The position numbers were made by a program, and so were the translations under genes. The notes beneath the pieces were generated by a model. That model saw only the letters and a list, made by a program, of their open reading frames with translations. It was not told where the DNA came from and made no database searches. Of a stretch of DNA of 64,000 bases, positions 24,967 to 56,420 are shown one piece after another. Source of the stretch: Mytilus galloprovincialis (Eukaryota; Mollusca; Bivalvia; Mytilida; Mytilidae); NCBI RefSeq assembly GCF_965363235.1, contig NC_134849.1, positions 16,704,863 through 16,768,862 on the forward strand, given 5' to 3'. Position 1 is the first letter of the stretch. Every line of letters starts with the position of its first letter.

Positions 24967-25321
24967 ACTACAACCCCCTTCCCTTTCATGAATATGACCT
25001 ACCGAACTAGACTATTTACCGGATTTGTAATCACATAAGCAACACGACGGGTGCCACATGTGGAGCAGGATCTGCTTACCTTTCCGGAGCACCTGAGATC
25101 ACCCCTAGTTTTTGGTGGGGTTCGTGTTGTTTATTCTTTAGTTTTCTATGTTGTGTCGTGTGTACTATTGTTTTTCTGTTTGTCTTTTTCATTTTTAGCC
25201 ATGGCGTTGTCAGTTTGTTTTAGATTTATGAGTTTGACTGTCCATTTGGTATCTTTCGTCCTCCTTTTTTAATAATGAGACTGACTTCAACCAGGAACCT
25301 CTTAGAAAAAAGGATAAGAAG

Positions 25322-25765: not shown

Positions 25766-26034
25766 ATGAATGTGACCTACTGAATTAGACTGTTTACCGG
25801 ATTTGTTATAGCATGAGCAACACAACTGGTGCCACATGTGGAGTAGGATCTGCGTACCCTTCAGGAGCACCCTTTTGGTGGGGTTCGTGTTGCATAGTCT
25901 TTAGTTTAATACTATGCTCTGTCTTGTGTACTATTATTTGTCTGTTTGTCTTATTTTCTTTTTTAGCCATTGCGTTGTCAGTTTATTTTCGATTTATGAG
26001 TATTACTGACGCTCTGGTATCTCAACCCTCTTTT

Positions 26035-27135
26035 ATGAGTTATCAACCGTTGTTATTTTGTGAAAGACTTCCATTTGATCCCCCCTGGTCGATAGAAGAA
26101 GCATAATACACATTTAAAAAGGGCGTCCAATTGTATTTTCGCTGTTTGAATCTACATCATTCATATGCAATAGAACTTTAAGATATCAAACAAGAAACAA
26201 CATTTAACTCATTATTTTGGCAATACAGAAGACAAAAAAACAATGCAAATACCATTATAAAGATACAGTATAAAAGTTGATCGTGAGTGCCAAAACCATG
26301 TTAAATTTACGTAAAGACGATGATAGATTGGTGTTTTATGTCAATAGGCAAGGCAAATAGCATTGGCATTTTAAAGGAAGATATAAGCAGCAAATATCAT
26401 TGTTCAATTTCGTTGGTTTGATAGTCTGGAGATCGAACCCATGACTTTCAGCACTCAGGACTAGACAGTTTAACTCAAGACCATCGAGACAATTCTGTAT
26501 CTGAAAAAAATCATATATTCTGACGCTTTATAATCGATCGCTAGACATTCGAATAGAGTTTCACAATAATGCCATGAACAGTTTAGGAATGCACGATATT
26601 AAAGGGTTCGTAAAATTTACTAGAAAAGAAATAAGGGAAAAATGGATTCGTGTTTTATACAATTTAGGCAAATAAAACCTACCCTCGAGCTCCTCGCACA
26701 CAAACAAGCAAAATTCCATAAAAGCCGATTGTTTTAACCAATTTTAAAATCAATTAAGCCAGGAATGATTTGCAGGATAATGTTTGTACGTGATTACTTT
26801 ATAAAGAATATTTTGTTTACAATAAAAAAAAAATGTATACGTGAAATACCACCTTCAATCAAATTCCACCGTTAATCCCTTTTTGAGATACAAGATCATA
26901 CTATTTAACAATTTGAACAATTTATGTATCTTTAGATACTTATTATAATGAAAGTAACGAAAATATTCAGTTGCTAATTAAACATTATAAAAACCTTACT
27001 GAATATTGAAACAACATTTTGAGTACGAATAAAAGTACAATGATGCTACAAATATCTAAAACAGCTAACTTGATTTACCAAAAATTTGCAAACAACAAGC
27101 CATAACCCGGATTTTGTAATTTTCTACTGTAAATA
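26035..27135. repeat. Left copy of a diverged 1.1 kb direct duplication
   Basis: Shares ordered blocks with 28310-29360: GAAAGACTTC(C/A)ATTTGA, GATGATAGATTGGTG, AGGATAATGTTT, CTTTATAAAGAATATTTT, TAATGAAAG and CCNGGATTTTGTAA. The spacing is conserved but many substitutions separate the copies, so the event is old. This copy also contains a tRNA-like SINE head that the other lacks. Confidence 0.7.
26418..26497 (-). repeat. tRNA-derived SINE head, degraded
   Basis: The minus strand reads ...TGGTCTTGAGTTAAACTGTC...GTGCTGAAAGTC...GGGTTCGATCTCC. This has a recognisable B-box (GGTTCGATC) and a weaker A-box at roughly tRNA spacing. The acceptor stem does not close, so it is not a functional tRNA gene. 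A tRNA-derived SINE is the simplest reading. Confidence 0.4.
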
Positions 27136-31060: not shown

Positions 31061-31830
31061 TTTTCGGTACTTATCCATCTTCGGATTTCAAATGTTTGGC
31101 TTTGAGTGTTCCTGATGAAGGTAAATGCAGAAAAGCACTTCGGACGCAATAAATTATTAAACGTGTTTTTTTCCATTTTTTACGGTTTTAATTTAACTTT
31201 ACAAAATTTCACTTTAAACATTGAATAGACATAATTAAACACACAAACACATATAGCTATCAAGAGATAAATGAATGCATTGGATGTATCAAAGAGGGAC
31301 GAAAGATACCAGAAGGACAGTCAAACTCATAAATCGAAAATAAACTGACAACGCCATGTCTAAAAATGAAAAAGACAAACAGACAAACAAAAGTACACAT
31401 GACACAACATAGAAAACTAAAAAAGAAACAACACGAACCCCACCAACAACTAGGGGTGATCTCAGGTGCTTCGAAAGTGTAAGCAGATCCTGTTCCACAT
31501 GTGGCACCTGTCGTGTTGCTTATATATATAAATGTGATAAAACTGATAACAAATCCGGTAATAGTCTAATTCGGTAGGTCACATTCATGAAATGGAAGGG
31601 AATTGTAGTTACGACGTAAGAAACATATCCGATATCATTTGTGAAACGGTTATTCCATAACGGTCAACCAACTCGTGATGGCGTTCGTAAAATTTACGAA
31701 GTGATGATTTCAACTTCACCATTTGAAACTCTTGATTTAATTGCTTTTTGTGAGCAACAACCCTCTATCATGAAAATCATGATAAGAAATGCAAGCACGG
31801 GAATATCGTATCTATGTTTGCTTCTCATAT
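31061..31830 (-). mobile_element. 3'-truncated Penelope-like retroelement
   Basis: On the minus strand, from right to left: an RT C-terminal remnant (31640-31825) matching the RGLLLT...LLNQEF...SSLRKFYGRHHELVDRYG region with frameshifts, then the 3' tail (31289-31540), then a terminal sequence (31061-31175) like the left edge at 24215. The order confirms that this terminal sequence also occurs downstream of the RT, as expected for Penelope-type terminal repeats. Confidence 0.65.
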
Positions 31831-32538
31831 CTGAGTGGCGTCAGCCCCAAAGTATGAGACGACTACATCCTAGTTGTATAGAAGTTATATTAAAATAAAT
31901 ACTTTCTCTGTTCTATTGTTCTAAAAAGAACAATTATTTTGATTAAATAGAAAAAGCGTCAATATCTCAAATTTTCTAGATGCAGTAACACTTTCAGAAG
32001 ATGTTTTGCAGTTATGGATCTGGGATGATCCTAATTGCGCCTATGTTTCTGTGATCAAATTGATATCACTCCTGACTTGAGGAATTATTAAACCCAAACA
32101 AACAAATTCTGATTGCATAGACTCAAATTTTTAAATATATTGCTCAGTTAGAGGCACTTCGGAGCAGTGCGAATATAAACTGGGCGACCGGTGTATGTTA
32201 ATCACGAAGCTTTTTATTTCAAAACTGACTGACAATTGCTAGCAGACAGAAGTAGGTGTAGAAAGCAAATGTGTTCTATTCCTTAAAAATCGAAACCTCT
32301 GACTACCTTTGAGACTTATTGCACCAACATGTTGGTCAAATATCTGATTTAAATATTTGAAACGTATATTGGGATTGAATTTCTATTTCACGACAACACG
32401 ACAAACGTCTAAGTTATTTTTTCAGATTGAAAAGCATGTCAATGTGCAGGTGAAACAATGTAGAAATACACAAAATGAATCACACTAATTAGTGCAATAA
32501 AAAAATGCAATATGATGTAATTTTTAGTAAATATAAAT

Positions 32539-34707
32539 ATGGAAGACGTCCACAAAATTTCAAGCATCGTATCTAAAACGTTATATATCACAGAGCAAGG
32601 GGTAAGCAATAAAATAGCAAATTTGCACAAAAACATAGTACACTGTAACACTATGTTCAGCACTGCAAGGAATGAAATGTGTCAAATACATTGTGGTGGA
32701 AGTTATGCAGAAGGTTTGTATTGTCCAGGTAGTGATTATGATATGATGATGGCCATTCCAAATATTTTAGTTTGTTCGAATGGAAAGAAAAGAATCCACA
32801 GAAATACCAATATCTTCCGAATGGATTCTACAAAATGTCGAGCAGGATTCTTCACGCTCGTTTTAAAACAGCTTGATAGTTCGGAAAATGATTTATTTCA
32901 GGTTTTGGGAAAAGATATAATCGTTATGCTAGAAAAAGACAAAGAAGTAAATCTTCTGTCTAGCGAAAAAATTTTACAGTTCTCAGTCGCTGTTTCTAAG
33001 AGGTTTGCACCAAATGCTTTCAATTACTCACAACATGGGCCAGCTGCTGCAACACGTACTGAAATTTATTCTCATGGTTTTATGGCCGGAAAAGGTTTCC
33101 TTGAATTTGACATTGACTTTTGTTTTGGTGTAAGGTACGATGGGTGGCCAACAGAAGCAGACGAGTGGGTTACAAGACAACGTAAATACAACTGGCCTCA
33201 GAAAGATCTGATTGAGAAGATTCGTTCTCTTGATTGCCATCTTGTTCCCGTTGGAGACAAGACATCCCAGAATAGTCATCTAGAATGGCGGTTGTCATTT
33301 TTGCTTTGTGAACGGGAGCTTGTGTGGAGTTTTAATGATATTCAAATACAGCTTTATTTTTTGCTGAAAGTATTACTGAAATCGGAACTGGAACAATTGT
33401 ATCAAGACCAGCTTAGCCCGTATTGCTTGAAAACCGCAGTATTCTGGTATTCAGAATCGCACGATCTAAACGAATGGAACGAGTATAATCTATTGGGCCT
33501 TGTCAAAGATTGCTTGCTGTTTATACTGTCTTTTATTAAAAACGGAGAACTCCAACATTACTTTGATCGAAATATAAATTTGTTGTATACAAAATTCGCT
33601 GATATTGAAAGAAAACAGAGGTTTATTGAGAAAAATAAAAGAACTTTCGAAAAATGTTATTCAAGCAGTAATCAATCTACTGTACCAAGAAGATGTAAGT
33701 AAAGCATGGAGCAAAAGCAATGGAGATCCGAAAACTTTCCTTCTTTTATGTGATGATGTGGATTTTCTCGTAACGTCGTTTCACAAACGCCGATATCTAC
33801 ATGACCAGTTATACACATATAAAGGCATATCACCTTTTTTTTTTACAGTATAGTAATTTACGACTTTGAGACACTGTGGTTCATCTGGAAATATGTTAGT
33901 ACTAATAAGTATGATGGTATTGACGATGATTTCTTAAACAGTGTTAGAAAATTTCTGACAATCAGAGTTGGAGTGAGTATTAGACTTAGTGAAGCACTGA
34001 AAAAACTAAATGAAGATGAATAAATACGCGCAGAAAGAGCAATCCTAAGTGCAATAGATATAGATAGAATATCTGGATATCTTTATCTTGCAACTTTTTA
34101 CCTTTATATTAACGAATTGAACTTGGCCATTCACACACTTGCTCGTGTTCTAAAAACGAATGAAGAAACAATTTTAATTTATCCAGGGGAGTGTTCTACA
34201 CATAAAGGGATTGGAATGACGTCCAGTAACATGTTATTTCAAACTGAAGGCCCTTTTTTAACAGGAAATATAAAAACAAGTGCTTGTGTAGGTTTTGATT
34301 TAATGTTTTCCTCAACTGATATATTATTTGTACCTGATCCTGTCAAGTATGAATGTGCCCTTGTTCAACTTGTCCCTGAAGGATTAATCATCATACATCC
34401 TGTGATATATGCATATTTTCTATTGACTTTTACTATGTACCACTCTGGAAACGTGCAAAAAACATGCGCATATTTAGAAAAACTAGAAAGAGCAGTTATG
34501 GAAGCTCAGGGTGGATGTCAACATTTTAGAGCGCTTAATTTGCTTGGATATTGCTACTTGCGTATTGGGCGATTCGATTCAGCATATAAAAGTTTTATAG
34601 AATCTATGAAGCAGACAGTGGGGTATTACCAAAATACTGCTATTTATCATATTATAATTCTCATTTTTAAAATTATAGAGATGGGTGTGCATGATACTAT
34701 CCTGTAG
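32539..34707 (+). pseudogene. cGAS-like receptor (Mab-21 nucleotidyltransferase), C-terminal half broken
   Basis: ORF 1 (32539-33702, 387 codons) has a nucleotidyltransferase loop GGSYAEGLYCPGSDYDMM with GS at residues 54-55 and acidic pair D66/D68. A third acidic position lies at D191 (EFDIDFCFG). The Mab-21 C-lobe pattern follows (WPTEADEW, DCHLVPVG, LEWRLSF, CLKTAVFW). cGAS-like receptors sense nucleic acid and make cyclic dinucleotides for STING; they are expanded in bivalves. Three defects follow: a shift to frame 2 near 33620 (LLRKIKELSKNVIQ continues there to 33853), a shift back in a 10-T run near 33840, and a TAA at 34021. Reading then continues with TPR-like helices (LATFYLYINELNLAIHTL; HFRALNLLGYCYLRIGRF) to 34707. 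Total span is about 720 codons, like an intact single-exon gene. The N-terminal 387 residues could still make a protein. Confidence 0.75.
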
Positions 34708-39690: not shown

Positions 39691-40260
39691 ATGGTGGTCC
39701 GTGTAATTAGGAGAAAGATACACTGGGGACTGGAGAATATGTACTTTAAGAGCCAGTCTGCCATAAAACCATGCAAAATTGTCCAAATCCAAAATATTCC
39801 AATCAGACTGATATTTTGTATTTTAGATACCTTATATGTAATAACTATTTGTGCAAAATATTTTGAAAAAATATTCAGCCATTTTTTGTGTATGCCAAAC
39901 ATTCGATAATTGTCCATTTCTGTACATACAAAGGCCATTTTTAGCCTATTTGAGGGTATTTTGACCCGATTTTTTTTAGTGTTATATAAAAAATACAGCT
40001 TAATGATAACAAATATCTTAACAAACAACTTAAAATGAAAGAAAATTATGATAATTCAAAAAGTTGTGACATTTCTCAATACCCCTACTGACAGGTTGAA
40101 ACTGCATGGTTTTGAAAAAGTGCCGATTCAGCAAAATTTGTATATATTTAAAGGCTTGAATCTTGTAAGATCATGTTTTATTTTCAATTAAATGTAATAT
40201 ATCATAAAGCTTATATATATATTTAGAAAATACAAGAAAATGGAGCCTGGCAAATGATAC
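39690..40260 (+). repeat. Dispersed repeat C, copy 1
   Basis: The phrases AGCCAGTCTGCCATAAAACC, CATGCAAAATT and GAGCCTGGCAAATGATACC occur in inverted order and orientation at 55855-56420. The 160-codon minus-strand frame across it (39546-40028) is not conserved in the other copy, so it is judged non-coding. Confidence 0.6.
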
Positions 40261-43088
40261 CTTCTTACAAAAAAATCATAATTAAAGATGGACATGATGG
40301 CAATTTTGCCGAATTTGTGATTTTTTCATCTGTTTCAATAGAAACTTTTCAAAACTATATGATAGTCAAAATACTAGAAAAATAATGACTAAACTAATGT
40401 TTACTGCTTATATTAATTGAATAAACTAAGTTTAACTTAGTTTAAATTAGAAAATATACTAAAGGAGTTAGTCCGGTAAGACCCTTTTTTTGCCTTTTTT
40501 CCCCTAAACTGAGCATTTTTACAATATGTTTAAAATAAAAACTTATTCATAAGAAAATTACTTTAGTAACTAAAAAATAGGCTGTTTTAATTACAATACT
40601 ATGCACACTCAGCAAGCAATATCATCATGAGTTCTTCACAATTTTAGCATTTTATCATGTTTATAATATGCTAGTTTTTAACGCTTTTTGTCTAAATTCA
40701 AAGTGGCCTCAATTGAGTTCAGTCTTAAATTTTTAAAGCATGTTGTATTTATATTGATTCATAAAACTGTTTAACATATAAAAGATAATGACTAAACATG
40801 AATGCAGCCCCTTACAATTTAGACAAAAAACTATCGTAAAGGTACTTAAAATTCTAAGCACTACTCCTTCAGATGAAATCAGGATATTTTTTTTTCTAAA
40901 ATAGTATAAAAATGTAGACAAAATTGTTCAAACTGCACAGCCTTGTACATTCAGTTGTTAATGTCTGTGTCATTTTGGTCTCTTGTGGACACATGTCTTA
41001 TTGGCAATCATACCACATCTTCTTTTTATATGTAATCTATTTCCAGAAAAGTGGAAGATTTTATAGTTTTGTGAATATCATAGAATTGTGCTTCTTACCT
41101 CAAAAAGTTCTATATTTTGTAAAATTGTGATAAAGCTTTAGGCCAAATATAAAGAGACTACTCCTAATAGTTCCTCATAAAAGTGCAACTGAAATTTTGT
41201 GACGGGACATGAACCAGATACAAGAGATACTTATAATCCCTATGTCACTTCTGGGAGTTTGTTCAGTTTCCTCCTAGAATGTAATCTCTAGCAACTTGAG
41301 ACTTGCAAATAAGACATGTAAGATACAGTTGGTCTATTACTACCAGCTGAGACAAACACAAATATTTCAAATTGCAATAAAATTTATTTCATAACCACAT
41401 GTAATAAAAACAAATATACACAGATAAATGGTTAAACTGTTGAGCAGACATTGCCATTAAAATGGTTATGATTTTACTGTTTATATAATATTTTGGTGGT
41501 ATACCGTAAAGAAAAACGTGCAAAATGGTCTAAATACAAGTTTTTAGTCATGCATGAACATGATAAAGCTTAATATTATAAGGTATTAGCAAAAAAGAAT
41601 AAAAGTATGATAGATCTGAAAAAATTTAACATAATAAAGTTATCAATATCTATTATAAATAAATATCAAAGAATTTTGCAGCATCAGAGTTGATAAAATT
41701 TTGATAAAAACAAGCATTCTGTGATTATTGCATGGCAATACATGTACATAGTCCCTAACCCGTTACAAATTCATTGCAACTGAACAAAATTTTAACTTGA
41801 TCTATAATTTGTCATGGTGTAAACTTCATAAAAATATCAAGACAAAATCTTCAAGCATAACCAAAAAACTTTTTGAAATGTGATTATCTGAGTGAATTTT
41901 ACATGTCCAAAGACCACAACTCTGCACACAAATATCAGACTGGAACAAAATTGAACCACTAAATACCAAAGAAAAGGAAAATACCAAAATGTCATTTTGT
42001 CTTTAAAAAAATGAGTTATTTTCGTTTGAACAGAAATCTTCTAATGAACATGATGAATAAGTATTTTATCAAAAAATTTAATTCTAAAGAAAGGGCTTTA
42101 ACTGAACAAAGAGAAAAGCTTAAAGCGTGAAAAATGAATTTGACCTGTAACTTGTCATGATAAATCAATAAATCAAATATCAAATTAAAATCTACAAGCA
42201 CAAAAAAATCTGATATGCCAAACTGACAGACAGACACAGTGCAAACCTAAGTCCACTTCTACTTCATCATTAGGAGACTAAACATCAAAATCTCAAAGTA
42301 TCAACAAACAGAAAAGAGATGGTCTTTGGAGAGGGGATTAAAGACATTCAAGATAATCTTGGAAAAGCTTTTGAATTTTGAAGAAGCAGGGCCACCTCAA
42401 CTGTCTTTCTTTTATCTGGATTTAATTTGAGATATAAACCAAAAACTTTTATATGGCACATATTTACTTTTTTCGTAGATAAAAAGAAATGGCCACATTA
42501 TTTTAGATAAGCTCTGATAGACACAACTTTCTAATCTAGGCACTCGATGGGTGATCAAAAGTTTTAAAGAGGTAGATATTTTGAAGTACAAGTATATTCA
42601 CAAATCTGTTTTATGTAACAAGCTTTTTAAAAGACTGTCATCAATTGAAAGTATATGAAAAAAAGGAACTAAAATGCCAGAAAAAATTAATGGTTTGTGT
42701 GTTTGTTTTCCAAGATATAAAACAATGAAATTTTGGCTGAAAATTTTGTTCATATATTTTTCATTGGCACTTACGTATACATGTACAAAACAAGGGAAAA
42801 AAATGAAAATAACAAGTATTTTAAAGGTTTATTAAAAAAGCAGTTTTTTTTTAAATTATACATGTAAACAAATTATAAAAAGAAAAGTAGAGAGTTTGCA
42901 GGCAAAACTTTTAATGGCACTACATGGATGAAACCAGAGGATTCAGAATATCTTGAAAAAAAAACCAACAGTGGCGAAGCATGTTCACAACCTCTATGGA
43001 CAATGATTGTCTTAAAGTTCTAGCATTAGTTTAAATTACAAATAAACATGATAACAGATACATGTGTTGCTACATGAAGAGTTCAAAG
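40261..43088. other. Non-coding; may hold the 3' UTR of the minus-strand gene
   Basis: A family B fragment lies at 40960-41020. On the minus strand an AATAAA lies near 42824-42829, about 260 bp after the stop codon at 43089, a plausible polyadenylation signal; others lie farther downstream. No other gene is supported. Confidence 0.4.
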
Positions 43089-46000
43089 TTACTCAAACTG
43101 AGAACCAATAGTTGTTACCAACTCTGAAATTCCATTATGGTATTCAAGGGTCTCTATTTCCTGCAGAACATTGTAAATTTCCTCATCATCTTCAATTATT
43201 TCTGGTTTTATCAATACTGGTGAACCAAGTTTTACATAATTTGCAAAGAGACTTCGAATTTGGGATGGAGAAAGCCATTCCTCCCTAGAAAACATTTTTG
43301 TTCCATTTTCAATTCTTTGCATTTTCAACTCTATTGACAATCTATCAAAGTTAGGTCTCTTCCCAGTTGTGCCACAATTCAGGTAGATGTTGTAAAGGTA
43401 GTCTTTAACCTTTTTTGTGAATCGTTTGCAAGGCCTGGATGTTTTCAGTGCCCATCCTTCCTTGGTCTCTGAAACTTCTGACGATACAGATTTTACCAAT
43501 ACCTTATACTGCCTATCTACTGCTATACACTTTTCAGACCAAATTTTTTTGACCTTGTCATAACTATTTTCATTTTTACTGTAGACATGATTTCCTCTAC
43601 AAATATGTGACTCCAGAAATCGGGGATGTGTATACTCTTTAACACAGCTCTGTTCAGGGCATGCAAAAAGGCCATCACAGTTCTCATTTTCTAGCTCATC
43701 ATTTTCTAACATATTTTCAGTGACATTACTGTTTTGATTGTTGTTTTCGTTCATGTCAACACTTTCTTTTAATGCTGCCACTTTTCCATGGTGTTCTTCT
43801 ACAAATTCTGGAAATGGGACAACCATCTGGAAAATAAAAAAAATCAATTAATTTTTGATTTCTATATATCATGTATATATATATATATATTTACAACATT
43901 ATGAAACAAATATTAAGGAATTGACATACTTTTATATGTTTCTGAGTTCAGTGTAATGTCCATTTCTAAAATTGTTTTACATGTTTTTAGGATCCTGTTG
44001 CTGCTAGCCTTTGGAATCCGGAGTAACCTTGCTTTTAAAGACCAAAAGGTCTGCTTTGGCTGTTTCCCAACTTTTTATTAGCTGCAGTATTTTTGACACA
44101 TTCCCCATTTTACATTCTTAATACTTTTTGCAAGGCAAGAAGAGAAAAAATTGTATGTCTTTTAAACATGCAATTATGAAGAATACGCCCTAATTGAAAT
44201 ATTTCATTCATAATCAAAAGGATCGAACATTCATGCAACAAATTCAATTAAATATGCCACATTATATTTGTCGGGATTACAAATGTTGGTTGGTTATTAA
44301 TTAACTCTTTCCTACATCAGCAGTTTTAAGTTTACATCTATAAAGTTGAGGTGAACTACCGGTATTGAAGTACCTTTAGCATCCAAGTCTGTGTCTGATG
44401 TATAATGTGAATATAAGGCTGGATGATCCTACCATGTATAGTTGCTCAGATATGAACATGTATTTAAACTTTAATGTCAGTCAATGAAGCATAAAATATG
44501 GGTCTGCAATTTTGAACTTTAATAAAAGTTTGACCTTGAACTTAATCCTACAACCATTTTGACAACCTCACTACCATGACTTAGTACAGGTAATATAAAA
44601 GTTATTTACTTCAAAACGTTGGCCTGTATGTATATACCTTGAATCCTTTAAGTGGAACAGGAATTGTCTTATCTAATTGGTAACATTGGCCTTTTCCTAT
44701 TTGATAAGCACGTCGCACTACCACTCCATAGGCTTGAAATTCAAAATTGTTCATAGAACTGATGTTTGGTATCTTTGCCTTGGTCTTTATTTCATACTTC
44801 TGGTCAACAGCAATTACAGATGCAAACACTCCTTTTACACCACCATTTGAATTTAAAGCTGTAATCATGTCTTCTGGTGTCAAAACATCATGACCCTCAC
44901 CTGTATATCTGAAAAAGAAAAAAAAAAATTATTGCATGAATTTGATAACTGGGCCTGAAATGTAATATCTAAATACATGGCTAGATTCAGCATATGAAAC
45001 ATGCAAAGTACCACAAACATTTTTTTTTTTAAAGCAAACAAAGTTTTTATTTTTGGATCCTCATTCGAATAAGCTGGAAAGCTTTGTCCAGAAGGGTAAA
45101 TATAAAAACATGCTCAGGTTCATCATATCAAAGGATACCTTGAATTTTATTTGTGTCAAAATCAAACTAAGTTTAATTTGGACCATTTGGTCCTTAATGA
45201 CATGAATGAGGACCAATTAAAAAAATCTTATCACGGTTTGCACACAAATTTACAAAGCAAAAACTCATGACTTTAATTCCCGGTGTAATTGATGCAGCCA
45301 GAAAGCATGCAAATTGGAAAAAAAACAGGCCAAATGCTGAACACTCCAAGAATTTATAGATTGCGCATCAGTCAAGCACAACTGATGCACTTTGTTGAAT
45401 TTATATCAAGCCCAATGTACCACCAAGCTAGGCTACGGATCAAAAACACTGCAGCTTTCTTCTGGCCTAGAAATGACAATTCCTAATGTAGTTAGAAATA
45501 TCATAACGTCTAGATTGATCACATGTTATACTGCATACTGCAAGGATCAGGGCTATGAAACATTCAGTATATCAACATTATATAACACCCTTAATTTAGG
45601 AGATAACTGTAATGTATTATCAGTTCCTACGGTATCAATTGGGGATTTGTTGGTTGCAAATAAAGTTTACTGGTGACGCCTTAGCAGAGACAGTAAACAG
45701 GTATTTGCGACCATTAATTCCCCAGTCAGAGCTTAAACAACAATATTGTTGTCTCCATTCTAATGAAACTGACTGAAAACAACGTTAAAATATGTATTTA
45801 AAATCGGACACATGACGTCTGCGCTTGCACGTACGTCCCATAGCATCAATTGTCAATTGATGCCATGTAAACAAGTGACATTATCAAATCAAAATAAACG
45901 TTACACACGTTGTTGCATTACTGTTGTGAAGCATCACTGAAAAAAAATCTCCATGGACTTGACAATATAACAGCTGATGGGATGAAAGCAGTTGAAAATA

Positions 46001-49000
46001 TTACAGACGTGATATCAAGATTACAAACATTTGGGCTAGAGGAAGAAAAAACAGAAAAATTAAGACAGATGATTTGTAGGGCAAACCAACATTTAAAGTT
46101 TGAGATGAAGGGCCATTTGTCATCTGAATCAACATGTATTGATCATTATACAGTCCATAGTTTAAGTGATGCATCATCATTAAATTTAGAGCAAATTGTA
46201 ACCATGAGCATACTGATGGATGTAACAATTGCTGTCTGGTGAACAATTTCTTTCATCAGATTGAAACAACATTCAAAAGTCTTGTATCCTTACCAACTGA
46301 TATAAGGCCTAAATTGATATATTCTTGGTTTCCCCAATCCCGACCCTGCCAAGCCTGAATATTATTAAATGATCCGGCAAGCCCGAAAATCAGAAATGAA
46401 TAAAATAATATTTAGTTACGACAATAAAATTTTATGAGTTGGACCATTTTTGCACAGGGTTGCTAGGTATTGGGGAAACAAACAATATTTTACTTTAGGC
46501 CTTATTCATGAATTTGACCATGATGTTAACAGACCAAATTTTATCATGGAAGGCTCATTGCTTCAGAACTGTCCACCAAGATAGAGCAAAGACTGAAGCA
46601 TTAACATGATTAAGAAATTTGCAAGACAACCAAGCATTAGTTGTGATGGATTGGGCTATGAAACTCCTTCCAATAAAGCACAGAGAAGCTCAAGGTGATT
46701 TCTTTGGTAAAAAAGGGATTAGTTGGCATATATCAACTCTTATCATGCTGGGGATTCCAGTGACTTACACATTTTTTCACTTCTTGAATTAGGGAATCAT
46801 GGCTGGTTTTTTGTTGCCTACATTATATCAGACCTTCTACTACAGATATCCATTATTCAACAAACATCTCAGAATTGATACTAAAATCTAACAATGCTGG
46901 CGGCTATCATTGCATACCTCTGATATCCTATATTCAAAACTGAAACATACATGGAAATATTGATATAAAGATTTCACAGTACATTTTAAGTGAGGCACAA
47001 TCAGGGACAGACATTTGTGATGCCAATACAGCTCACTGCAAAATGCACATATTGAGGTAAGGAAAACATTATTGTAGTACATAAAATTTTGTAAGCTAGC
47101 AGTTTTTAACTCATACAGGTAATTATAATCAGCATTATTTCTCTAATTTTGGTTCTTTCTGCACATTTCTTGAGTGGTGTGATAAAAGATGAAATCAAGA
47201 CAATTTAATGTTCTAATTAAATTCTGACCATCATTTGCTGAGAACAATATCATTTCACATGTGACGAGAAACTTTTTTTCTTTATTCACTCAAGAAATGT
47301 GCAGAAAGTACCAAAATTAGAGAAATAATGCTGATTATAATTACCTGTATAAATAATAAATAAAAAACAGCAAGCTTACAAAATTTTATGTGCTACAGTA
47401 ATATTTTCCTTACCTCAATATGTGCATTTTGCAGTGAGCTGTTTTGGCATCACAAATGTCTTTCCCTGATTGTGCCTCACTAAAATTGTACTGTGAAATC
47501 TTTATATCCATATTTCCATGTAGGTTTAAGTTGTGAATGTAGGATATCAGAGGTATGCAATGATAGCAGCCAGCATTGTCAGATTTTAGTATCAATTCTG
47601 AGATGTTTGGATGAATAATGGATATCTGTAGTAGAAGGTCTGATATAATGTGGGCAACAGAAAACCAGCCTTGATTCCCCAATTCAAGGACGTGAACAAA
47701 TGTGTAAACATTCAAGTCACTAGAATCCCCAGACAGGATAAGAGATGATATATGCCAACTAATCCCTTTTTTACCAAAGAAATCACTTTGAGCTTCTCTA
47801 TGCTTGATGGGTAAGAGTTTCATAGCCCAATCCATCACAACTAATGCTTGGTTGTCTTGTAAATTTCTTAATACTTCAGTTTTTGCTCGATCTTGGTGGA
47901 CAGTTCTGTAACAATGAGCCTTCCATGATAAAATTTGGTCTTTTGCTCTATTGATGTCATGGTCAAATTCATCAATAACATCAGTTGGTAATGATACAAG
48001 ACTTTTGAATGTTGTTTCAATCTGATGAAAGAAATTGTTCACCAGACAGCAATTGTTACATCCATCAGTATGCTCATGGTTACAATTTGATCTAAAGTTT
48101 ACTGATGATGCATCACTTAAACTATGTACTGTGCAATGATCAATGCATGTTGATTCAGATGACAAATGGCCCTTCATCTCAAATTTTAAATGTTGGTTTG
48201 CACTGTAAATCATCTGTCTTAATTTGTCTGCTTTTTCTTCCTCTAGCCCAAATGTTTGTAATCTTGATATCACGTCTGTAATATTTTCTACTGCTTTCAT
48301 CCCATCAGCTGTTATATTGTCAAGTCCATGGAGATTTTTTTTCAGTGATGCTACACAACAGTTGAGGATGTTATATAATGTTGATCTACTGAATGTTTCA
48401 TAGCCCTGATCCTTGCAGTATGCAGTATAACAGGTGATCAATCTAGATGTTATGATATTTCTAACTACCTTAGGAATTGTCATCTCTAGGCCAGACGATA
48501 GCTGCAGTGTTTTTGATCCATAGCCTACAGCTTGGTGGTACATTGGGCTTGATATAAATTCAACAAAGTGCATCAGTTGTGGCTGACTGAGACGCATTCT
48601 ATAAATTCTTGGAGTGTTCAGCATTTGGCCTGGTTTTTCCAAATTTGCATGCTTTCTGGCTGCATCAATCTTTGACATAGTTACACCAGGAATTAAAGTC
48701 AAAAGTTTTTGCTTTGTAAATTTGTGGGCAAACAGTGATAAGATTTGAAGCTGAGTGTGATGACTATTCTGGTCTAAGTAGGCTTTAATAAGAGCTTCAG
48801 TCATAACATCCAGTTGTAATATTGACTGTGTTTCGTCAGTTTTACTCTTTTCTACTACAGATGCAAAAACTTTATCGACTTGTCCAGGTACGATATAACT
48901 TAAAACTAAATTTATAATTTCAGAAGATAATTTTGTGTAAAAAGCCTTCGAACTTTTTGATGCCTCATCCCATGCCAGATTCAGTTGGTTTTTAAATGGT

Positions 49001-52000
49001 GGATGCTTTCCATTGCTAAGGATATGCAAAGCTCTGTTCAGTTTCTCTCTGTCAGACATGTTATCGGCTTCCCAATCTGATGCTGAAGATTGTGAAAAAT
49101 GAGTTGATGTTGTGAACATACTTGTCTGAGAATCAGCATCTAAAGTTTGGCTTTCATCTCTATCTGAAAATATAAGAAATACATCTGCTATGAAAAATAT
49201 TTGAATTAAAGTGGAATGAATTCTAATATAGATACATGCCCATAATATATGGAATAACTATTTTTTAAAGTAAATTATGTTGTGTACTTTTGGCGTATCG
49301 AGCTGTACTAAACTATCTTTAACCCCAAAACTATCCACTGGTTAAGTGTCCATGCTATACCATGTCAAGTATCTGAAATATTAACCTACAAATGTCTGAA
49401 ACGTTTAGGCGGATAGACTTCATCCTGATAAACATCAGGGCGCAGCTTTATACGACCGCAGAGTTTGAAGCCTGAACATTGGGGCAAGTATAGACACAAC
49501 ATTCAAGCTTGATACAGCTCTGAATTTGGATTGTGATTAAATAGTTGACACAACACAGGTTTCTGACACATAATGAATGTGGTCTAAGAATTTAAACTTA
49601 AAAAACTTAAAATTTTAAATTGGACATTACCTATTAGGGTCCTATATCCAAAATCGAAATACATGGTTATATTCAGCATATCAAAGAACCCCAAGAATTC
49701 AATTTTTGATGAAATCAAATAAAGTTCAATTTTGGACCCTTTAGACCTCAATGAGGACCAATCTGATAACTGGGCCCAAACATCAAAAATCTAAAATATA
49801 ATACATGGTTAGATTAAGCATATATCAAAGAACCCCATATATACAATTTTTGTTGAAATCAAACAAAGTTTAATTTTGGACCGAAATTTGGACCAACTTT
49901 AAAACTGGGCCTATAATCAAAAATCTAAATACAAGTTTAGAATCAGCATATCAAAGAGCCCCAAGGATTCAATTTTTGTTGATATCAAACAAGTTTAATT
50001 TTGGACCACTATTTGGACCAACTTGAAAACTTGGCCCATAATAAAAATTATAAGTACATGTTTAGATTCAGCATATCAAAGAACCCCAAGGATTCAATTT
50101 TTGTTGAAATCAAACAAAGTTTAATTTTGGACCACGATTTGGACCAACTTGAAAAGTGGGCCCATAATAAAAAATCTAAGTATATGTTTAGATTCAGCAT
50201 ATCAAAAAACCCAAGAATTCAATTTTTGTTGAAAACTAACAATGTTTAATTTTGGACCCCAATTTGGACCAACTTGAAAACTGGGTCAATAATCAAAAAT
50301 CTAAGTACATGTTTAGATTCAGCATATCAAAGTACCCCAAGAATTCAATTTTTGTTAAAATCAAACTTAGTTTAATTTTGGACCCTTAGGACCTTAATTT
50401 AGACCAATTTGAAAATGGGACCAAAATTTAAGAATCTATTCAACTCGTGACTGAACAACACTGATGATTAACTCATGCGCTACGCACATTTGTGAATTAA
50501 TGTGTTGTTTGGACACTCGTTGAATGTTTTTCTCTATTTGAATTCTTGGATTAGTTATTCTATTATTATCATTCTCAGATTTGCTCTGAATGCTTTAGTT
50601 TCACTTAATGCCTTTTAAACCAATGTTCTATTTTTAGCCAAGTCGATCATCTTGGATGGTGGTCAGGACCATTGGACACATTTTTTAAACTAGATACCTT
50701 AATGATGATTGTGGTCAAGTTTGGTTAAGTTTGTCTTAGTAGTTTCAGTGAAGTTTTTGTTAAGGGCATCCGATACAGTTTCTCGATATAATGTCATTTT
50801 TATAATTTTGAAATATGTTGTAGGCCTTGGCGAGTTATAAACTAAAATACAAAATAAAACATAGGTCACCGTGCTTGTTTTCGAGAAAATTGAGGCTGAA
50901 AATTGGGGATTTGTGCAATTTTGTAAAAAAAATAGGCAATGTTATAAAATTTTTGGAGCAGATATTCTTCGTCGTAAATTATTAAGATCTGGTTCAATCT
51001 GAAGCTGTGATAAGTGGCAATAAAGAAAAAAATAAATCACTACACGAATAACTATAAAATTATTCAAGTCTTGCTTGACATTGCGGACCAGATGCTCAAA
51101 GTGGTATTTTTCTAAACCTAAAAAAATGGAAAAAAAACTGTTTCTGAAAATGTCATTTTTATCATTTTTCTGAATAAACTGCATTTTGTCCTGCTTTCTC
51201 CAAATCTCAAATAAAAAATATAGGTCACCGTGCTGGATTCCATGATAATCGCGATTAATCCTAAAAAATTGCGTCACCCCTTTGTAACCTCAACGTTAGC
51301 GCTAAAGTGCACGACGTCGCTGGCAGACAATTTCGACGTTATCGCTTCAAATTACCCGCGACATTTTTCAGATGTATAAATATTGCTTGTAAAGTACTAA
51401 CTATAAATTGGTAACATTGTTTTCGGAAGTAAAATCATGTGAATAACAAATACCTCTCTGTGTTTGTGGTCTAAGTGAGAAACATCTCAAGAAAAGTTAT
51501 TACGGACTGTTGATAATTTTTACGGCTTTCAAAAGTTAAAGACTCGGCAATTTAGAACATGACATACAGGTACATTTACTGTACACACTCGTATATTATT
51601 TCATACTGTATGATGACCTCTAGTTGTTGTTCTTTGTTTTGTTTTGTTTGGTTGGCTGCTGTTTCATTACACATACTCCTTAATATCCTTTAATTTACGT
51701 TTTTATCACTGAGAAAATCCGTTTTTGTTGATACAAATTTTATAAAAGTTATAATTAGCGTCGATTGGACAGTAATCAAATTTGACGCGCATTGCAATTT
51801 GAATTAGAATTTACGCTAGGACGTAAAACATTTCGAATGCGAATTAAACTAATTCAAATTAGGTGTGAACTCAGCATTCTCCTGCAAACGGAACTTCTTT
51901 TTTATGTACATAAATTGCAGCACATAAATTATGCCGTTACTTTTCTCGTTTGAGTTGTTTTACCTTGTCATTTCGGGACCTTTTATAGCTGACTATGTGG

Positions 52001-55000
52001 TACGGGCTTTGCTCATTGTTGAAGACCGTACGGTGACCTATAGTTGTTAATTTCTGTGTCATGTTTGTCTCTTGTTGAGAGTTGTCTAATTGGCAATTAT
52101 ACCACATCTTCTGTTTTATGTGGTCAGGAAACAGAAGCAAAATCTTACAAAGGAGAATCTTCAATTTGCTAATGGATGCTTTTGTCCAGACAGAGAAACT
52201 ATAATTTTGAAATTTTTGATTTGGCGAAAAAACGATTGAATTAATAGCGAGAGGACTGGATATATTACAATGATCTACAATTAGTTGCGATTAAAATCAT
52301 TCTCTCATAGCGTAATTTTATTGGTAAATAACTATATATTTTTTTCACCACAGCGCGTATATAAAATACCGCATGTCCATTCCCCTGTCTGTCCTTCCGG
52401 ACTTCTGGTTAATTAGATTTTTCAAGTGTACAATTCTTGCCAACTTTCTATAAAACTGATATCGTATGGACACGTTCGAAAATCAGTGCATATCAACTAT
52501 TCTTTAAAAGAGTTATGCCATTTGGAAATATTAATTATATTGAAAATTGCATTGTATTTTCTGTCATTCCGTCATTTCTCTAATATATCTATAAAAAAAA
52601 TAAAGAAAAAAATAAACAGCTGCGCTTAGAGCGCATGATACGCCCTTCGTCTTATGAAAAACCAACCAACATAATATATGTTTTTAAAATAACACGGGGG
52701 TTGTACGGGAAGTCATGCTAGGTATATCCTGACTCATTCATTATTCTTGCTCAATAGGAAGTTTATATATCACAACATGTTGTAGAGTGATGAATCAATC
52801 TGAAAACTCATCACACAGTATAGCTGAGTTATAAAAACCCTGAAAACAAATTTCAGAAACCTTGTATTGTAGTTTATGAGAAAAATGTGACGAAATATTT
52901 TCATTTGACGGGTGGATGGACAGACCGACGGACTGACAGATGGACAGACAGAGGTTAAACAGTATACCCTCACTTTTTGTATATATATAAAAAAAAGAAT
53001 GTCACACTGAACTTCTGCATAACAATGGTTCATCTTTGAAATTCTAATCAGTGGCAAATCCAGAAAGGTGGGTTGGGACAATCAATGCATTTGAATGGGG
53101 ACATATACTTGGAACCCCCTTTTTAAAAATGGCTGGATCCGCCCCTGCTAATCCTTACAAATGACTTTTACCATTACATTGTATTATTTACACACTTACC
53201 TGATTCATTTTCTACACGAACTTTCTCTGCATCAACATTAATGTCACATGCCATCTTAATCTGCACCGACTGATACAAATCTGTAAAAAAATAAGCAGTC
53301 TAGTTTGATATTTGGCGATCAGTTGTTTGAGAAGAAAAGACTCTGTTACACATTAAAGTGGAATAATTTTAATCTTAATCTAGAACTTCATGACTCTTTT
53401 CTGCAGCTGGAAAATATATAGATTAATTGATAGTAAATTATCAGTGGCGGATCTAGAAATTTTCATAAGTGGGGGCCCACTGACTGACCTAAGAGGGGGC
53501 CCGCTCCAGTCACGCTTCAATGATTCCCTATATAAGCAACCAAATTTTTTCCCAAAAAGGGGGGGCCCGGTCTAAATCCGCCTCTGATTATAGAAGATAC
53601 CAGAGAACTTAACATCCACAGCATTTTTATTATGACTTTCATGGGATCAGACGTTTGCTACTGTGGTATGTACATGTAGATCAATATTATATTTCTCCAT
53701 TGTCATACCTGCAAACTGCCACTATTTGCGGGTGATTTCCCCCATGAAGACTCCCAATTGGAGATTTTAAAAGAGCAATTTTGTCCACAATTTAAAAAAA
53801 AACCAATTTATTTTACATTGGTTTCAGGCTTGTAAAAGTATATGAAGAAGCCAAAAAAAAACTAACATTAAAATATATTTGAAGGCCCCCTTGTAGGTTT
53901 TGAACATATAAGAACCATTTTGCATGTAAAACCCCCATTTGCATTTTGAAAAGTTGGCAGGTATACATTGTCCATGTCATGCATTTGTTGTCTAAATTAA
54001 TTACTAGTAGAATATATATATACATGATATATTACAGTGGTCTCTAAGCCCAACATAGCAGTACGATGACCTACATGTACATCAGTGGTTGTCGGTACAT
54101 GTATAGTTGTTAATTTCTATGTCATCTGGTCTCTTGTTGAACATTGTCTCATTGGAGATCAAACCACTTATTTTTATAAATGCAATAACATTCTCATACA
54201 TCATGTACATGTATGTTTGCTTACCAACATCTTCTTTTGAATCAACTTTGATTCCCCCATCATCTACTGTTTGTCTAATTTTGGTAAAACACTGCTTGCA
54301 GAGACCTACAAATTAAAGTTAATGTACATCTTTGATAAAAAATGGAATAATGAAGCCAGCTAATGTAACCATACACATTCAAAACATCAATATAGCACAA
54401 TCATGCCTTGATAAAAATTTATAATTTACAATTTGATATCTTGACATATTTTTTGACTAATGTCTTGCAATTTAAAGTTTGCATTTATAAATCGAAGATG
54501 GTGATTCAGATTGTGTGTACAAAAAAAAATGTCTGTTTAGTTCACGCATCGTTGTAAATATATTACGGAATTTGATAAGACTGTCGTACAAAGTGAGAGG
54601 TTTAGCGTTATAAAACCAGTTTTAATTCACCATTTTCTAGGTTTGAAAATGCCTGTACCAAGTCTGGAATATGACAGTTGTTGACCATTAGTTTTTGATG
54701 TGTCTTGTCATTTGATTTTGCCATGAATAGGGACTCTCTGATTTGATTTTGAGAGTTCAGCATTTTTGTGATTTTACTTTTTATAGAGTTGAGACATGTC
54801 TCGGTTACAAAATTACCTAGTTAGTTACGAATGAATAGGTTGGAAACGACCAGATTAAGAAATACACTGCATCCATGGCCACACAAAATGTCAATGAAAA
54901 TAAAGAGTATCAGGTAAGAGGGGGGTTCGAGGGGTCCTGATACTGTAATCCAGGGCTTAAAAACACGAAATCCTGAGGTCAGGAAATTAAATAGATTTAA

Positions 55001-55610
55001 ATCCCGACATTCAGAAATTCGAAACAAAAATTCCCAGATCCCAAAAGGATCAATTCTGAAACACCAAGATTAAAAATACCCTTCCCAGAGTCAGGAGAAA
55101 GGTCCTATCCCCCCTCAGGTCATACCTCACTATTTTGTAATTAGCAAAAGACTTTTATATTCGATTTTTACCTGATCCAATTGGAATGAGTTCTCTTTTC
55201 AAAAGCCAGTATTCTTTGGACTGGGTTGGTGTTGTTCCTCTTACAGCTTTTGCCTTACTGCCAGCAGGATGTTCTTTAAATTTGCACTTTGCTGAATTGT
55301 CCCGCCAATAAATCCCAAAAAAGTCTCTGTGCCATGGACATATGGACAAATTTAAAGACGCACGATCAATTGAAAAAATACCACTTCTATATAAAATCAA
55401 AAGTCCTTCTTGGAACTGAGAGTTGGATAAAGTCAAAGAGGCATCAGTGCAGTGAAGAGATTGAAAGTGCGTGGTTGTGTCCTTTGTACATTGATAAACA
55501 TTTTCTAAATGAATGGAAGAATAGTGTTTTGATTGTCCACAACAACCTTGAAGGTGAGAAAAATCGCATCGAATAGATACTTCTGCTTTTCCATCACTGG
55601 AAGCTGCCAT
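43089..55610 (-). CDS. Zinc-finger protein with DDE-like core, six exons, 1119 residues
   Basis: Exons (minus, in order): 55172-55610, 54225-54305, 53200-53280, 47414-49163, 44638-44908, 43089-43826. All introns are GT-AG and every junction keeps frame, giving 1120 codons including the stop. The N-terminus has a Cys/His-rich stretch (ICPWHRDFFGIYWR, a later CKFKEH, then GLCKQC across the exon 1/2 join). Exon 4 encodes a long helical region and then three acidic blocks: MDWAMKLLP (D about 645), SDNAGCYH (D about 729) and FSEAQSGKDICD (E about 763). This is a DD(33)E-like spacing typical of RNase H-fold transposases. Exon 6 holds one C2H2 finger (CX4CX12HX5H in CPEQSC...H...H). I recall uncharacterised homologues in cnidarians, sponges, molluscs and fish. 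Function is unknown; a domesticated or transposon-borne integrase is inference. Intron 4 contains an inverted copy of exon 4. Confidence 0.78.
44935..45240. repeat. Isolated units of repeat family D
   Basis: Phrases GATAACTGGGCC, ATACATGGCTAGATTCAGCAT and AATCAAACTAAGTTTAATTTGG match the tandem array at 49600-50440. It lies at the outer edge of the inverted duplication in intron 4. Confidence 0.75.
45596..45905. other. Insertion of about 310 bp in the inverted exon copy
   Basis: Exon 4 reads continuously from TTATATAACAT to CTGTTGTGTAGC, but this copy has extra sequence between those points. It includes a short palindrome (CATCAATTGTCAATTGATG, about 45843-45861) and no coding frame. Boundaries and target duplication are unclear, so the element type is not assigned. 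Confidence 0.55.
46304..46503. mobile_element. MITE with AAGGCCTAAA ends, 200 bp
   Basis: The left end is AAGGCCTAAATTGATATATT and the right end is its inverted form beginning AAGGCCTAAAGTAAAATATT. The inverted repeat extends for about 37 bp to a shared GTTTCCCCAAT. It interrupts the exon 4 copy between CCAACTGAT and GAATTTGACCATGA. A related but larger element lies at 56814-57225. Confidence 0.8.
49410..49575. repeat. Dispersed molluscan repeat upstream of tandem array D
   Basis: Contains CATCAGGGCGCAGCTTTATACG and CAGCTCTGAATTTGGATTG, a sequence I associate with a widespread bivalve repeat that commonly sits next to array D units. It lies in intron 3 of the zinc-finger gene. Recognition is from memory. 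Confidence 0.5.
49600..50440. repeat. Tandem array of repeat family D, about 7 units of roughly 120 bp
   Basis: Units follow the order: TAATCAAAAATCTAAGTACA, TTTAGATTCAGCATATCAAA, GAACCCCAAGAATTCAATTT, TTGTTGAAATCAAACAAAG, TTTAATTTTGGACC, ACTTGAAAACTGGGCC. The array lies wholly within intron 3 of the zinc-finger gene. The 82-codon frame at 50001-50249 is simply two units read through and is not a gene. Confidence 0.9.
52000..52110. repeat. Dispersed repeat family B
   Basis: A clean copy: TGGTACGGGCTTTGCTCATTG, GAAGACCGTACGGTGACC, TAATTTCTGTGTCATG, TGGCAATTATACCACATCTT. It serves as the reference for the partial copies at 16270, 22255, 40960 and 54095. Confidence 0.85.
52780..52985. repeat. 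Dispersed repeat with GACAGACGGAC microsatellite
   Basis: Ends in a degenerate GACNGAC run (52917-52955) followed by GAGGTTAAACAGTATACCCTC. The layout is typical of a bivalve repeat in which a unique block precedes the microsatellite. Located in intron 3 of the zinc-finger gene. Confidence 0.5.
53049..53147. mobile_element. CAG-GGCGGATC family MITE, 5-bp target duplication
   Basis: Ends are CAGTGGCAAATCCAG and GGATCCGCCCCTG (inverted). It is flanked by exact CTAAT direct repeats (53044-53048 and 53148-53152). It lies 50 bp from exon 3 of the zinc-finger gene, on the donor side. Confidence 0.85.
53442..53586. mobile_element. CAG-GGCGGATC family MITE, 5-bp target duplication
   Basis: Ends are CAGTGGCGGATCTAG and AAATCCGCCTCTG (inverted). 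Flanked by exact ATTAT direct repeats (53437-53441 and 53587-53591). It lies on the other side of exon 3 of the zinc-finger gene, so exon 3 is bracketed by two members of one family. Confidence 0.88.
54095..54180. repeat. Dispersed repeat family B, partial
   Basis: TATAGTTGTTAATTTCTATG, CATCTGGTCTCTTGTTGAAC and ATTGTCTCATTGGAGATC match the middle of family B. It ends 45 bp before exon 2 of the zinc-finger gene. Confidence 0.8.
54590..54760 (-). repeat. Dispersed repeat E, inverted copy
   Basis: The reverse complement contains CTTGGTACAGGCATTTTCAAA and ATAACGCTAAACCTCTCAC, matching 28000-28100 and 28765-28935. Located in intron 1 of the zinc-finger gene. Confidence 0.75.
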
Positions 55611-55854
55611 CTTGCCAGTTAAAGATTTCCACTAAGGGAGATAATCCAACCACAACCATAACATCGAGGCTACCTTTGGGTAACTTAATGTTAAATTTTG
55701 CAGAATAACTTTAAAAAAATGATATTTAGACAGAAATAATTTTTCTGCATAAAATAAATCAATATAAGTCTACTTTGATCAGTTTTAGTTAAAATATTAA
55801 GGGGCAAAAACTATTAGAATTAGTGCATTTTATAGATATTTGGGGTGCATTTTT

Positions 55855-56420
55855 TACTAACTTCCCGTTATTTGCCAGGCTCAAATTTTTTTTGTGTCTT
55901 AGAACTGATATGCACCTTTAAAAAAAGAATAAAAGTTCAAAAAAAAATATATGATCTTGAGAGAAAACTCCTACTGAGTACATGTATTATATGCAAGTTA
56001 TCTAATACATCTGTTGCACGAACCTCTCTGGCAACCTGCCAAAACATAAAAAAATCTCAACATGCATTTTTTTTTGGTAATTTAATGATGTTCTTTGCAA
56101 AATATAACAAAATAATGTTATATTTAAGAGATATATCAATTATCCAGACCTTTAAAAAGTACCTAAATATGGTGATTTTTTTTGCATTTTTTTTAAATAA
56201 TTCCCAAATATGCAAATTAGGCTGTTAAATGGGAAATAGTGTAAATTAACAAAAAAAAAAAATTTCATCTTAACTCCTAAATACCCAAAGATTTTGGAAA
56301 TATATATAATGTTGCCAAGTTGTAACTACCAATTTGGACGAAATATGAGATTTTGCATGGTTTTATGGCAGACTGGCTCTTAAAGGGAGATAATTTACTG
56401 TGATCATGTGACAGACCACA
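55855..56420 (-). repeat. Dispersed repeat C, copy 2 (inverted)
   Basis: TTTGCCAGGCTCAAA at the left and GCATGGTTTTATGGCAGACTGG at the right are the inverted counterparts of the ends of 39690-40260. The interior is more diverged. Confidence 0.6.

What the first reader, a model, noticed from the sequence alone, without database searches (positions are those of the whole stretch)
45241..48730. Intron 4 carries an inverted copy of exon 4: a built-in long hairpin
The left arm (45241-47176) is an inverted copy of 47287-48730, with a 110-bp spacer. The right arm is mostly exon 4 of the zinc-finger/DDE-like gene and the left arm lies wholly in the next intron. Any unspliced transcript therefore contains about 1.3 kb of exon sense sequence and its near-complement. 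Such structures can feed Dicer (hairpin siRNA), attract ADAR, favour exon skipping, or form circular RNA. The copy includes intron bases beyond the donor, so it arose by DNA duplication, and two insertions in one arm give it some age.
Basis: partly seen in the sequence, partly recalled or inferred. Interest (0 to 1): 0.85.

Follow-up and report, generated by a model that had tools for sequence, protein, structure and literature searches.

The report
Jumping gene carrying its own hairpin
A 16.6-kb jumping gene in this genome carries, inside an intron of its own transposase-like gene, a decayed backwards copy of the preceding exon; the copy is real and is shared with a second copy of the element, but it looks like a genetic scar rather than a maintained silencing device.

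Summary
The inverted repeat is real. Left arm 45223-47176 and right arm 47287-48746 match at 94.1% over their exon part, apart from two repeat insertions and small gaps in the left arm. The right arm is 1.33 kb of an exon plus its donor; the left arm lies wholly in the next intron (44909-47413). An internally deleted copy on another contig (about 99.6% identical) holds the same left arm, both insertions and a piece of the right arm, so the palindrome is no assembly fold-back and predates that copy. Assigned left-arm changes are spread evenly over codon positions; right-arm changes are mostly third-position. Complementarity is therefore not visibly maintained. Folding predicts a near-complete hairpin if unspliced. 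Published surveys find no endogenous siRNA pathway in molluscs, which weakens the Dicer reading if this is a mussel (not proven here). Best reading: a transposon-internal inverted duplication, mostly a neutral scar, architecturally like maize Mu killer. Expression is untested.

The parts
39750..56379 (-). 16.6-kb DNA transposon (TIR to TIR, 16630 bp); the transposase-like gene runs on the minus strand
   Evidence: Perfect 30-bp TIRs, TTAA on both sides; C6 deletion derivative shares both ends with collinear interior pieces; right- and left-end families
39746..39749 (.). Target-site duplication TTAA, left
56380..56383 (.). Target-site duplication TTAA, right
39750..39779 (+). Left terminal inverted repeat, 30 bp
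56350..56379 (-). Right terminal inverted repeat, 30 bp
47414..49163 (-).
   Evidence: homologous open frame at C7, 65% identical
44638..44908 (-). Next exon (in phase: ...HILR|YTGEGHDV...)
43089..43826 (-). Last exon with C2H2-like finger and stop codon
44909..47413 (-). Intron holding the whole left arm, the spacer and the intron part of the right arm
47287..48746 (-). Right arm: 1333 bp of exon plus 127 bp of intron
47177..47286 (.). Spacer between the arms, 110 bp
45223..47176 (+). Left arm: inverted, pseudogene-like copy of the right arm
45596..45919 (+). Insertion 1 in left arm: 324-bp dispersed repeat
   Evidence: 40 scored of 1616 candidates; also in the C6 copy
46302..46505 (+). Insertion 2 in left arm: about 204-bp repeat with its own terminal inverted repeats
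   Evidence: 40 scored of 422 candidates; 100% identical in the C6 copy
49436..50450 (.). Tandem repeat of about 125 bp inside the element, shared with gene-less relatives
55158..55631 (-). Open frame that may be an upstream exon of the gene (unproven); its DNA is also in the C6 derivative

Best explanation
The palindrome is an inverted partial duplication of a transposase-like exon inside one 16.6-kb TTAA-inserting DNA transposon. Shown: the element's ends and target duplications, the two arms, their exon/intron placement, an internally deleted copy elsewhere with the same left arm and insertions, and codon-position patterns of a decaying left arm and a conserved right arm. Inferred: it arose by fold-back or template switching during DNA repair of the element (the three junctions of the C6 derivative share 2, 2 and 5 bp and are not splice junctions, the mark of end-joining or slipped repair). 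Inferred: it persists because the left arm lies in an intron and is normally spliced out, so the protein is intact. Any unspliced transcript should fold into a ~1.3-kb duplex that would most likely be edited, retained in the nucleus or lost: a mild accidental brake on transposase output rather than an evolved silencing device.
For: Arms and splice sites. Transposon: 30-bp TIRs; identical 4-bp flanks in 17 of 18 elements with both ends in hand, one of them TGAA/TGAA, which argues against TTAA being part of the repeat. C6 derivative: four collinear pieces, 23 mismatches in 6262 alignment columns; junctions. Left arm: assigned changes 13/11/12 over codon positions 1/2/3, 29 nonsynonymous, 1 stop, 6 synonymous; right arm 2/1/9, 5 nonsynonymous, 7 synonymous. 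Open spliced frame. No inverted exon copy in 7 of 7 relatives held, 4 of which include downstream exons. Predicted fold: 1349 of 1460 right-arm bases pair with the left arm.
Against: No RNA data of any kind. 29 of 77 arm differences could not be assigned, and 21 of those 29 are synonymous, so left-arm synonymous changes may be undercounted. With the C7 outgroup alone the contrast between arms is only p=0.063. In the 609 bp where the C1 fragment serves as outgroup, the right arm has about 15 private third-position changes against 3 in the left, more than equal age predicts; local conversion or a non-in-situ origin of an arm is possible. The transposase role is inferred: no convincing Pfam or PDB match and a poor structure model. 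The repair mode is not shown.
Confidence: 0.66

Rival explanations
1. Built-in self-silencing: the hairpin RNA from the unspliced transposase transcript triggers small-RNA silencing of the element, like maize Mu killer but carried inside the gene-bearing element.
For: Architecture: 1.3 kb of transposase-like exon inverted in cis; near-complete predicted duplex. Mu killer also duplicates about 1.3 kb of mudrA (PMC3440606, abstract and passages). Among 40 scored of 690 candidates only the window matches the downstream exons at DNA level, as expected of a restrained element, though equally of a rare one.
Against: Molluscs are reported without DICER2/siAGO or an siRNA signature (PMC11114477, PMC12479628, passages). 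Only 372 of 1317 exon 21-mers have a perfect antisense partner. The left arm shows no constraint. The element has transposed since the hairpin formed, to judge by C6 and its own TTAA flanks.
Confidence: 0.1
2. Cis attenuation: the duplex in the pre-mRNA is edited by ADAR, masks the exon or retains the transcript in the nucleus, with a measurable effect on transposase output.
For: Predicted fold; PMC12479628 suggests RNA editing as a possible fate of mollusc long dsRNA (passage).
Against: No RNA evidence; the right arm kept an open, mostly synonymously changing frame; the left arm shows no constraint.
Confidence: 0.17
3. The left arm came from a diverged sister element (inter-element template switch or insertion), not from in-place duplication, so the arms' divergence predates their joining. 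(This concerns origin and can hold together with the best explanation.)
For: Third-position excess in the right arm against the C1 outgroup; pieces of many related copies exist.
Against: No closer source seen in the assembly: the matches of more than 100 bp at 88% or more are only this locus and C6 (a 35-bp piece at C1 reaches 91%). The arms are each other's closest relatives (94.1% against about 86% to C1).
Confidence: 0.25
4. Assembly artefact (fold-back of a read or contig).
For: Palindromes are a known artefact type (recalled).
Against: 5.9% divergence, frameshifting gaps, two arm-specific insertions, and an independent C6 copy.
Confidence: 0.01

Closest known systems
Mu killer (Muk) of maize, derived from the MuDR transposon
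   Same: Partial inverted duplication of a transposase gene, about 1.3 kb, proposed to form a long hairpin RNA (PMC3440606, abstract and passages)
   Different: Muk is a separate rearranged locus that silences MuDR lines in a plant; here the inverted copy sits in an intron of the intact-looking gene itself, in an animal, with no silencing data and an arm that shows no constraint
hpRNA loci of Drosophila (long inverted-repeat transcripts giving endo-siRNAs)
   Same: Long inverted repeat derived from its potential target gene (recalled for some hpRNAs)
   Different: Those are hairpin loci giving endo-siRNAs in flies (PMC10317233, PMC10292708: search listing and start of abstracts only); no such pathway is reported in molluscs
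Kolobok superfamily DNA transposons
   Same: TTAA target duplication; 5'-RR...YY-3' termini (here GA...TC); a conserved CxxH motif followed by a C2H2-like finger
   Different: No profile match; identity of the last catalytic residue not established; autonomous KolobokP families are 4-4.7 kb (PMC9587614) against 16.6 kb here; Repbase not available to compare
piggyBac superfamily
   Same: TTAA target duplication
   Different: No Pfam match to its transposase; termini follow the rule that PMC9587614 gives as setting Kolobok apart from piggyBac

Membership tests
DNA transposon with terminal inverted repeats (general) | Terminal inverted repeats and fixed-length target duplication at many sites | tested here: met
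   30-bp perfect TIRs; 17 of 18 elements with both ends have identical 4-bp flanks, 1 of 18 (L029) TTAA/TTTA; 2 further sites (L017, L023) had only one recognisable end
DNA transposon with terminal inverted repeats (general) | Dispersed copies, some without the gene | tested here: met
   40 scored of 105 and 40 of 175 candidates; 16 of 16 other copies with both ends (4865-8740 bp) have no match to the exon, left arm or downstream exons
DNA transposon with terminal inverted repeats (general) | Element encodes a DDE/D transposase that moves it | tested here: inconclusive
   Gene inside TIRs; D444, D528 and E562 kept in 4 of 4, 3 of 3 and 3 of 3 sequences that cover them; RNase H-like strand order in a poor model, mean pLDDT 43.2; no convincing Pfam or PDB match
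Kolobok | TTAA target duplication | tested here: met
Kolobok | 5'-RR and YY-3' termini | tested here: met
   GAGCC...GGCTC; rule from PMC9587614, section 0 part 1
[quoted passage not shown]
   CKMH at residue 577 follows D528 and the finger starts at 729, but the last E is not assigned; if E562 is catalytic the order does not fit
piggyBac | piggyBac transposase domain | tested here: not met
   No Pfam family matched by the 918-residue spliced product at E<=5
Mu killer-like silencing locus | Inverted duplication of transposase coding sequence | tested here: met
   (the transposase role itself is inferred)
Mu killer-like silencing locus | Produces siRNAs and silences intact elements | not testable with these tools
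   No RNA or genetic data
hpRNA (endo-siRNA) locus | Dicer-processed duplex in an animal with an siRNA pathway | not testable with these tools
   Literature argues against it for molluscs; species not named by any search

The most novel reading that the evidence does not exclude
An animal DNA transposon that carries its own brake: an intronic inverted copy of its transposase exon makes every unspliced transcript a long hairpin, so transposase output falls as transcription outruns splicing. In a phylum thought to lack siRNAs this would act through editing, nuclear retention or piRNAs fed by antisense intron RNA: a self-limiting Mu killer built into the gene-bearing element.
Probability: 0.09. 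Interest if true: 0.78.

Novelty: new variant of a known kind. Interest (0 to 1): 0.42.

Why it matters
Inverted duplication of a transposase gene is how at least one genome (maize, Mu killer) acquired heritable transposon silencing. Finding one inside the gene-bearing copy of an animal transposon family, with an internally deleted copy carrying the same arm, gives a natural case of the first step that can be dated relative to a transposition. It also supplies a defined long endogenous inverted repeat with which to test what molluscs, reported to lack an siRNA pathway, do with long double-stranded RNA. The transposase-like gene family has many relatives in this genome (71 scored of 668 first-look candidates) and no Pfam model was found for it.

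Tried and rejected
Assembly fold-back: rejected (divergence, arm-specific insertions, C6 copy). Retrocopy or spliced-RNA origin: rejected, because the copy runs past the donor into the intron and the three C6 junctions are not GT-AG but share 2, 2 and 5 bp. Circular RNA from flanking repeats: rejected on anatomy, one arm being the exon itself. Recurrent hairpins as a family trait: not supported, 0 of 7 relatives held (L010-L016); only 4 of the 7 (L011, L012, L013, L015) also hold the last exon, so for the other 3 the intron may be out of reach. L016 has inverted repeats of about 650 bp and L010 short ones, neither over its exon match. The 7 were chosen; 4 of them are among the 73 rows, whose other relatives I did not examine. 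Structure-based classification: model too poor (mean pLDDT 43.2), so no fold search was run. Viral contigs: 34 pattern matches, none confirmed. Pfam at E<=5 gave only weak single-member hits (best 0.069) and none for the spliced product. The orientation test of the left ends was faulty, so its left-end identities are not used; redid it (16 gene-less copies against the window: mean 0.884, min 0.538, max 0.950; the low minimum shows at least one poor alignment, so for identities I rely). Synonymous distance to C7 was saturated (dS undefined).
Full report
OBSERVATION. Ungapped repeats and a gapped alignment give left arm 45223-47176, spacer 47177-47286 and right arm 47287-48746. Over the exon part the two arms match at 1226 of 1303 aligned bases. 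The gene is on the minus strand. Its exon 47414-49163 ends at a GTAAGG donor, the next exon is 44638-44908 and the last is 43089-43826; joined, they read 918 residues with one terminal stop. The left arm therefore lies wholly in the intron 44909-47413, and 1333 of the right arm's 1460 bases are exon. In a relative on contig C7 the same intron is about 0.8 kb and in one on C5 about 0.4 kb (read from match positions); here it is 2.5 kb.

WHAT IT SITS IN. One search placed the window in an unnamed 1.385-Gb genome (331 contigs) and found a second copy of the left arm on contig C6. Comparing the 10-kb C6 locus with the window showed four window pieces in the same order and orientation: 56384-54611, 47883-47681, 47060-45261 and 42224-39742, with 7, 1, 8 and 7 mismatches (23 in 6262 alignment columns, 12 further columns being gaps). 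The outer ends of that copy are inverted repeats of each other. In the window the same ends are a perfect 30-bp terminal inverted repeat with TTAA on both sides. Searches with each end found families with sharp cut-offs at those ends: 40 scored of 105 candidates and 40 scored of 175. I fetched 20 stretches at the 18 best right-end matches after the window and C6 (two sites got a second, adjoining stretch). Sixteen of the 18 sites had both terminal repeats in hand; L017 and L023 had one. Counting the window and C6, 18 elements had both ends: 17 of 18 have identical 4-bp flanks, one of them TGAA/TGAA; one, L029, has TTAA/TTTA. The 16 others are 4865-8740 bp long and have no match to the exon, left arm or downstream exons. 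They mostly share parts of window 39746-42661 and 55761-56384 and, in most, copies of the 125-bp tandem repeat. So the window holds a 16630-bp gene-bearing DNA transposon and C6 holds an internal-deletion derivative of it or of a near-identical element. In a DNA search with window 42700-44930, 40 of 690 candidates were scored: the window itself, and 39 others that all fall in query positions 1-282 (window 42700-42981), outside the exons.

THE GENE. A protein search with the exon product gave 73 match rows, among them the window itself, its left arm and C6 pieces (71 scored of 668 candidates), including open frames at C7 (65% identity) and C5 (54%). The list is a lower bound: 3 of the 7 relatives found are not in it. 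Two relatives, on C4 and C5, are 98-99% identical to each other over the 7 kb held, which again fits mobile DNA. No Pfam family was matched convincingly, nor any solved structure (best E 0.7). Residues D444, D528 and E562 of the spliced product are kept in 4 of 4, 3 of 3 and 3 of 3 aligned sequences that cover them, and the poor structure model (mean pLDDT 43.2) shows an RNase H-like order of strands there. Calling it the transposase is an inference from this and from its place between the repeats. TTAA duplications and GA...TC termini follow the Kolobok rule as stated in PMC9587614 (section 0 part 1 and passages read); the CxxH motif (577) and downstream finger (729) fit it too, but the last catalytic residue is not settled, so membership stays open.

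HISTORY OF THE ARMS. Using the C7 and C1 relatives as outgroups, changes assigned to the left arm fall 13/11/12 on codon positions 1/2/3 and those of the right arm 2/1/9; 29 of 77 differences could not be assigned. In effect: left 6 synonymous, 29 nonsynonymous, 1 stop; right 7 and 5; unassigned 21 and 8; random expectation 24% synonymous. Fisher tests of positions 1+2 against 3 give p=0.018 (both outgroups), 0.0009 (C1 only: left 6/5/3, right 2/1/15) and 0.063 (C7 only: left 16/11/17, right 3/1/10). The left arm thus behaves as a pseudogene, also by its frameshifting gaps, and the right arm as a coding exon; since the unassigned sites are mostly synonymous, left-arm synonymous changes may be undercounted. 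Pairwise dN and dS to C1 are 0.096 and 0.412 for the right arm, 0.115 and 0.245 for the left. The C6 left arm is 99.45% identical to the window's (1795 of 1805) and has the same two insertions, so the hairpin and insertions came before the C6 copy. One result does not fit neatly: within the 609 bp covered by C1, the right arm has about 15 private third-position changes against 3 in the left, too many if both arms are equally old. Local gene conversion, or an arm derived from a sister element, would explain it; so I do not claim that selection on the exon acted while the hairpin was already in place.

MECHANISM. RNA folding of the 3524-nt arm-to-arm transcript pairs 1349 of 1460 right-arm bases with the left arm (minimum energy -2374.8 kcal/mol). 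372 of 1317 exon 21-mers have a perfect antisense match. A duplex is thus likely if the intron is unspliced. What the cell does with it is unknown here. For molluscs, PMC11114477 (passages) reports no DICER2 or siAGO and no siRNA signature in an oyster; PMC12479628 (abstract, outline and passages) reports no evidence of a dedicated siRNA pathway in the molluscs surveyed, discusses limits of detection, and suggests editing as a possible fate of long duplex RNA (the word Mytilus does not occur in it); PMC4793324 (passages) reports one Dicer, one AGO and two PIWI-like proteins in Mytilus galloprovincialis; PMC6085071 (passages) reports somatic transposon piRNAs in the animals sampled, a whelk among them. 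The unconstrained left arm argues against selection for pairing. I therefore favour a passive scar with perhaps a weak accidental brake.

COMPARISON AND NOVELTY. The nearest known case is maize Mu killer, about 1.3 kb of mudrA inverted (PMC3440606, abstract and passages). The novelty is the placement: in an intron of an intact-looking gene of the gene-bearing element, in an animal, with an internally deleted copy elsewhere carrying the same arm. The text searches listed no title or abstract start reporting such an arrangement in an animal transposon; I saw the listings and the passages named above only, and subscription papers and Repbase were not searched.

On rereading my calls I corrected the scope of the 94.1% figure, the capped searches, the source of the 7 relatives, the 35-bp exception, and the junction overlaps.

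Noticed in passing
window 49436-50450 and 44932-45229: A tandem repeat of about 125 bp lies upstream of the exon, with partial units in the next intron; many gene-less relatives of the transposon carry it too.
   Followed up: partly
L009 (C6:101852001-101862000) 3886-4086: The C6 derivative lost the centre of the palindrome; its three deletion junctions share 2, 2 and 5 bp and are not splice sites, as might be expected if palindromes promote deletion.
   Followed up: partly
window 47756-48430: Right arm has about 15 private third-position changes against 3 in the left arm relative to the C1 fragment; unexplained.
   Followed up: partly
whole genome, match rows: A large family of transposase-like genes for which no Pfam model was found, several with long open frames, possibly an undescribed transposon lineage.
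   Followed up: partly
L012 and L013 (C4:31969001-31976000, C5:32028001-32036000): Two gene-bearing relatives 98-99% identical over the 7 kb held; their ends were not found in the DNA held.
   Followed up: no
window 32521-33702 and 34024-34707: Neighbouring open frames match Mab-21 domains above cut-off and tetratricopeptide repeats below cut-off.
   Followed up: no
window 24701-26038 and 31291-31812: Repeats shared with the C1 locus L010 at 82-96% identity.
   Followed up: no
L016 (C11:32315001-32322000) 1585-2242 and 5996-6625: Inverted repeats of about 650 bp flanking, not overlapping, a fragment of the gene family.
   Followed up: no
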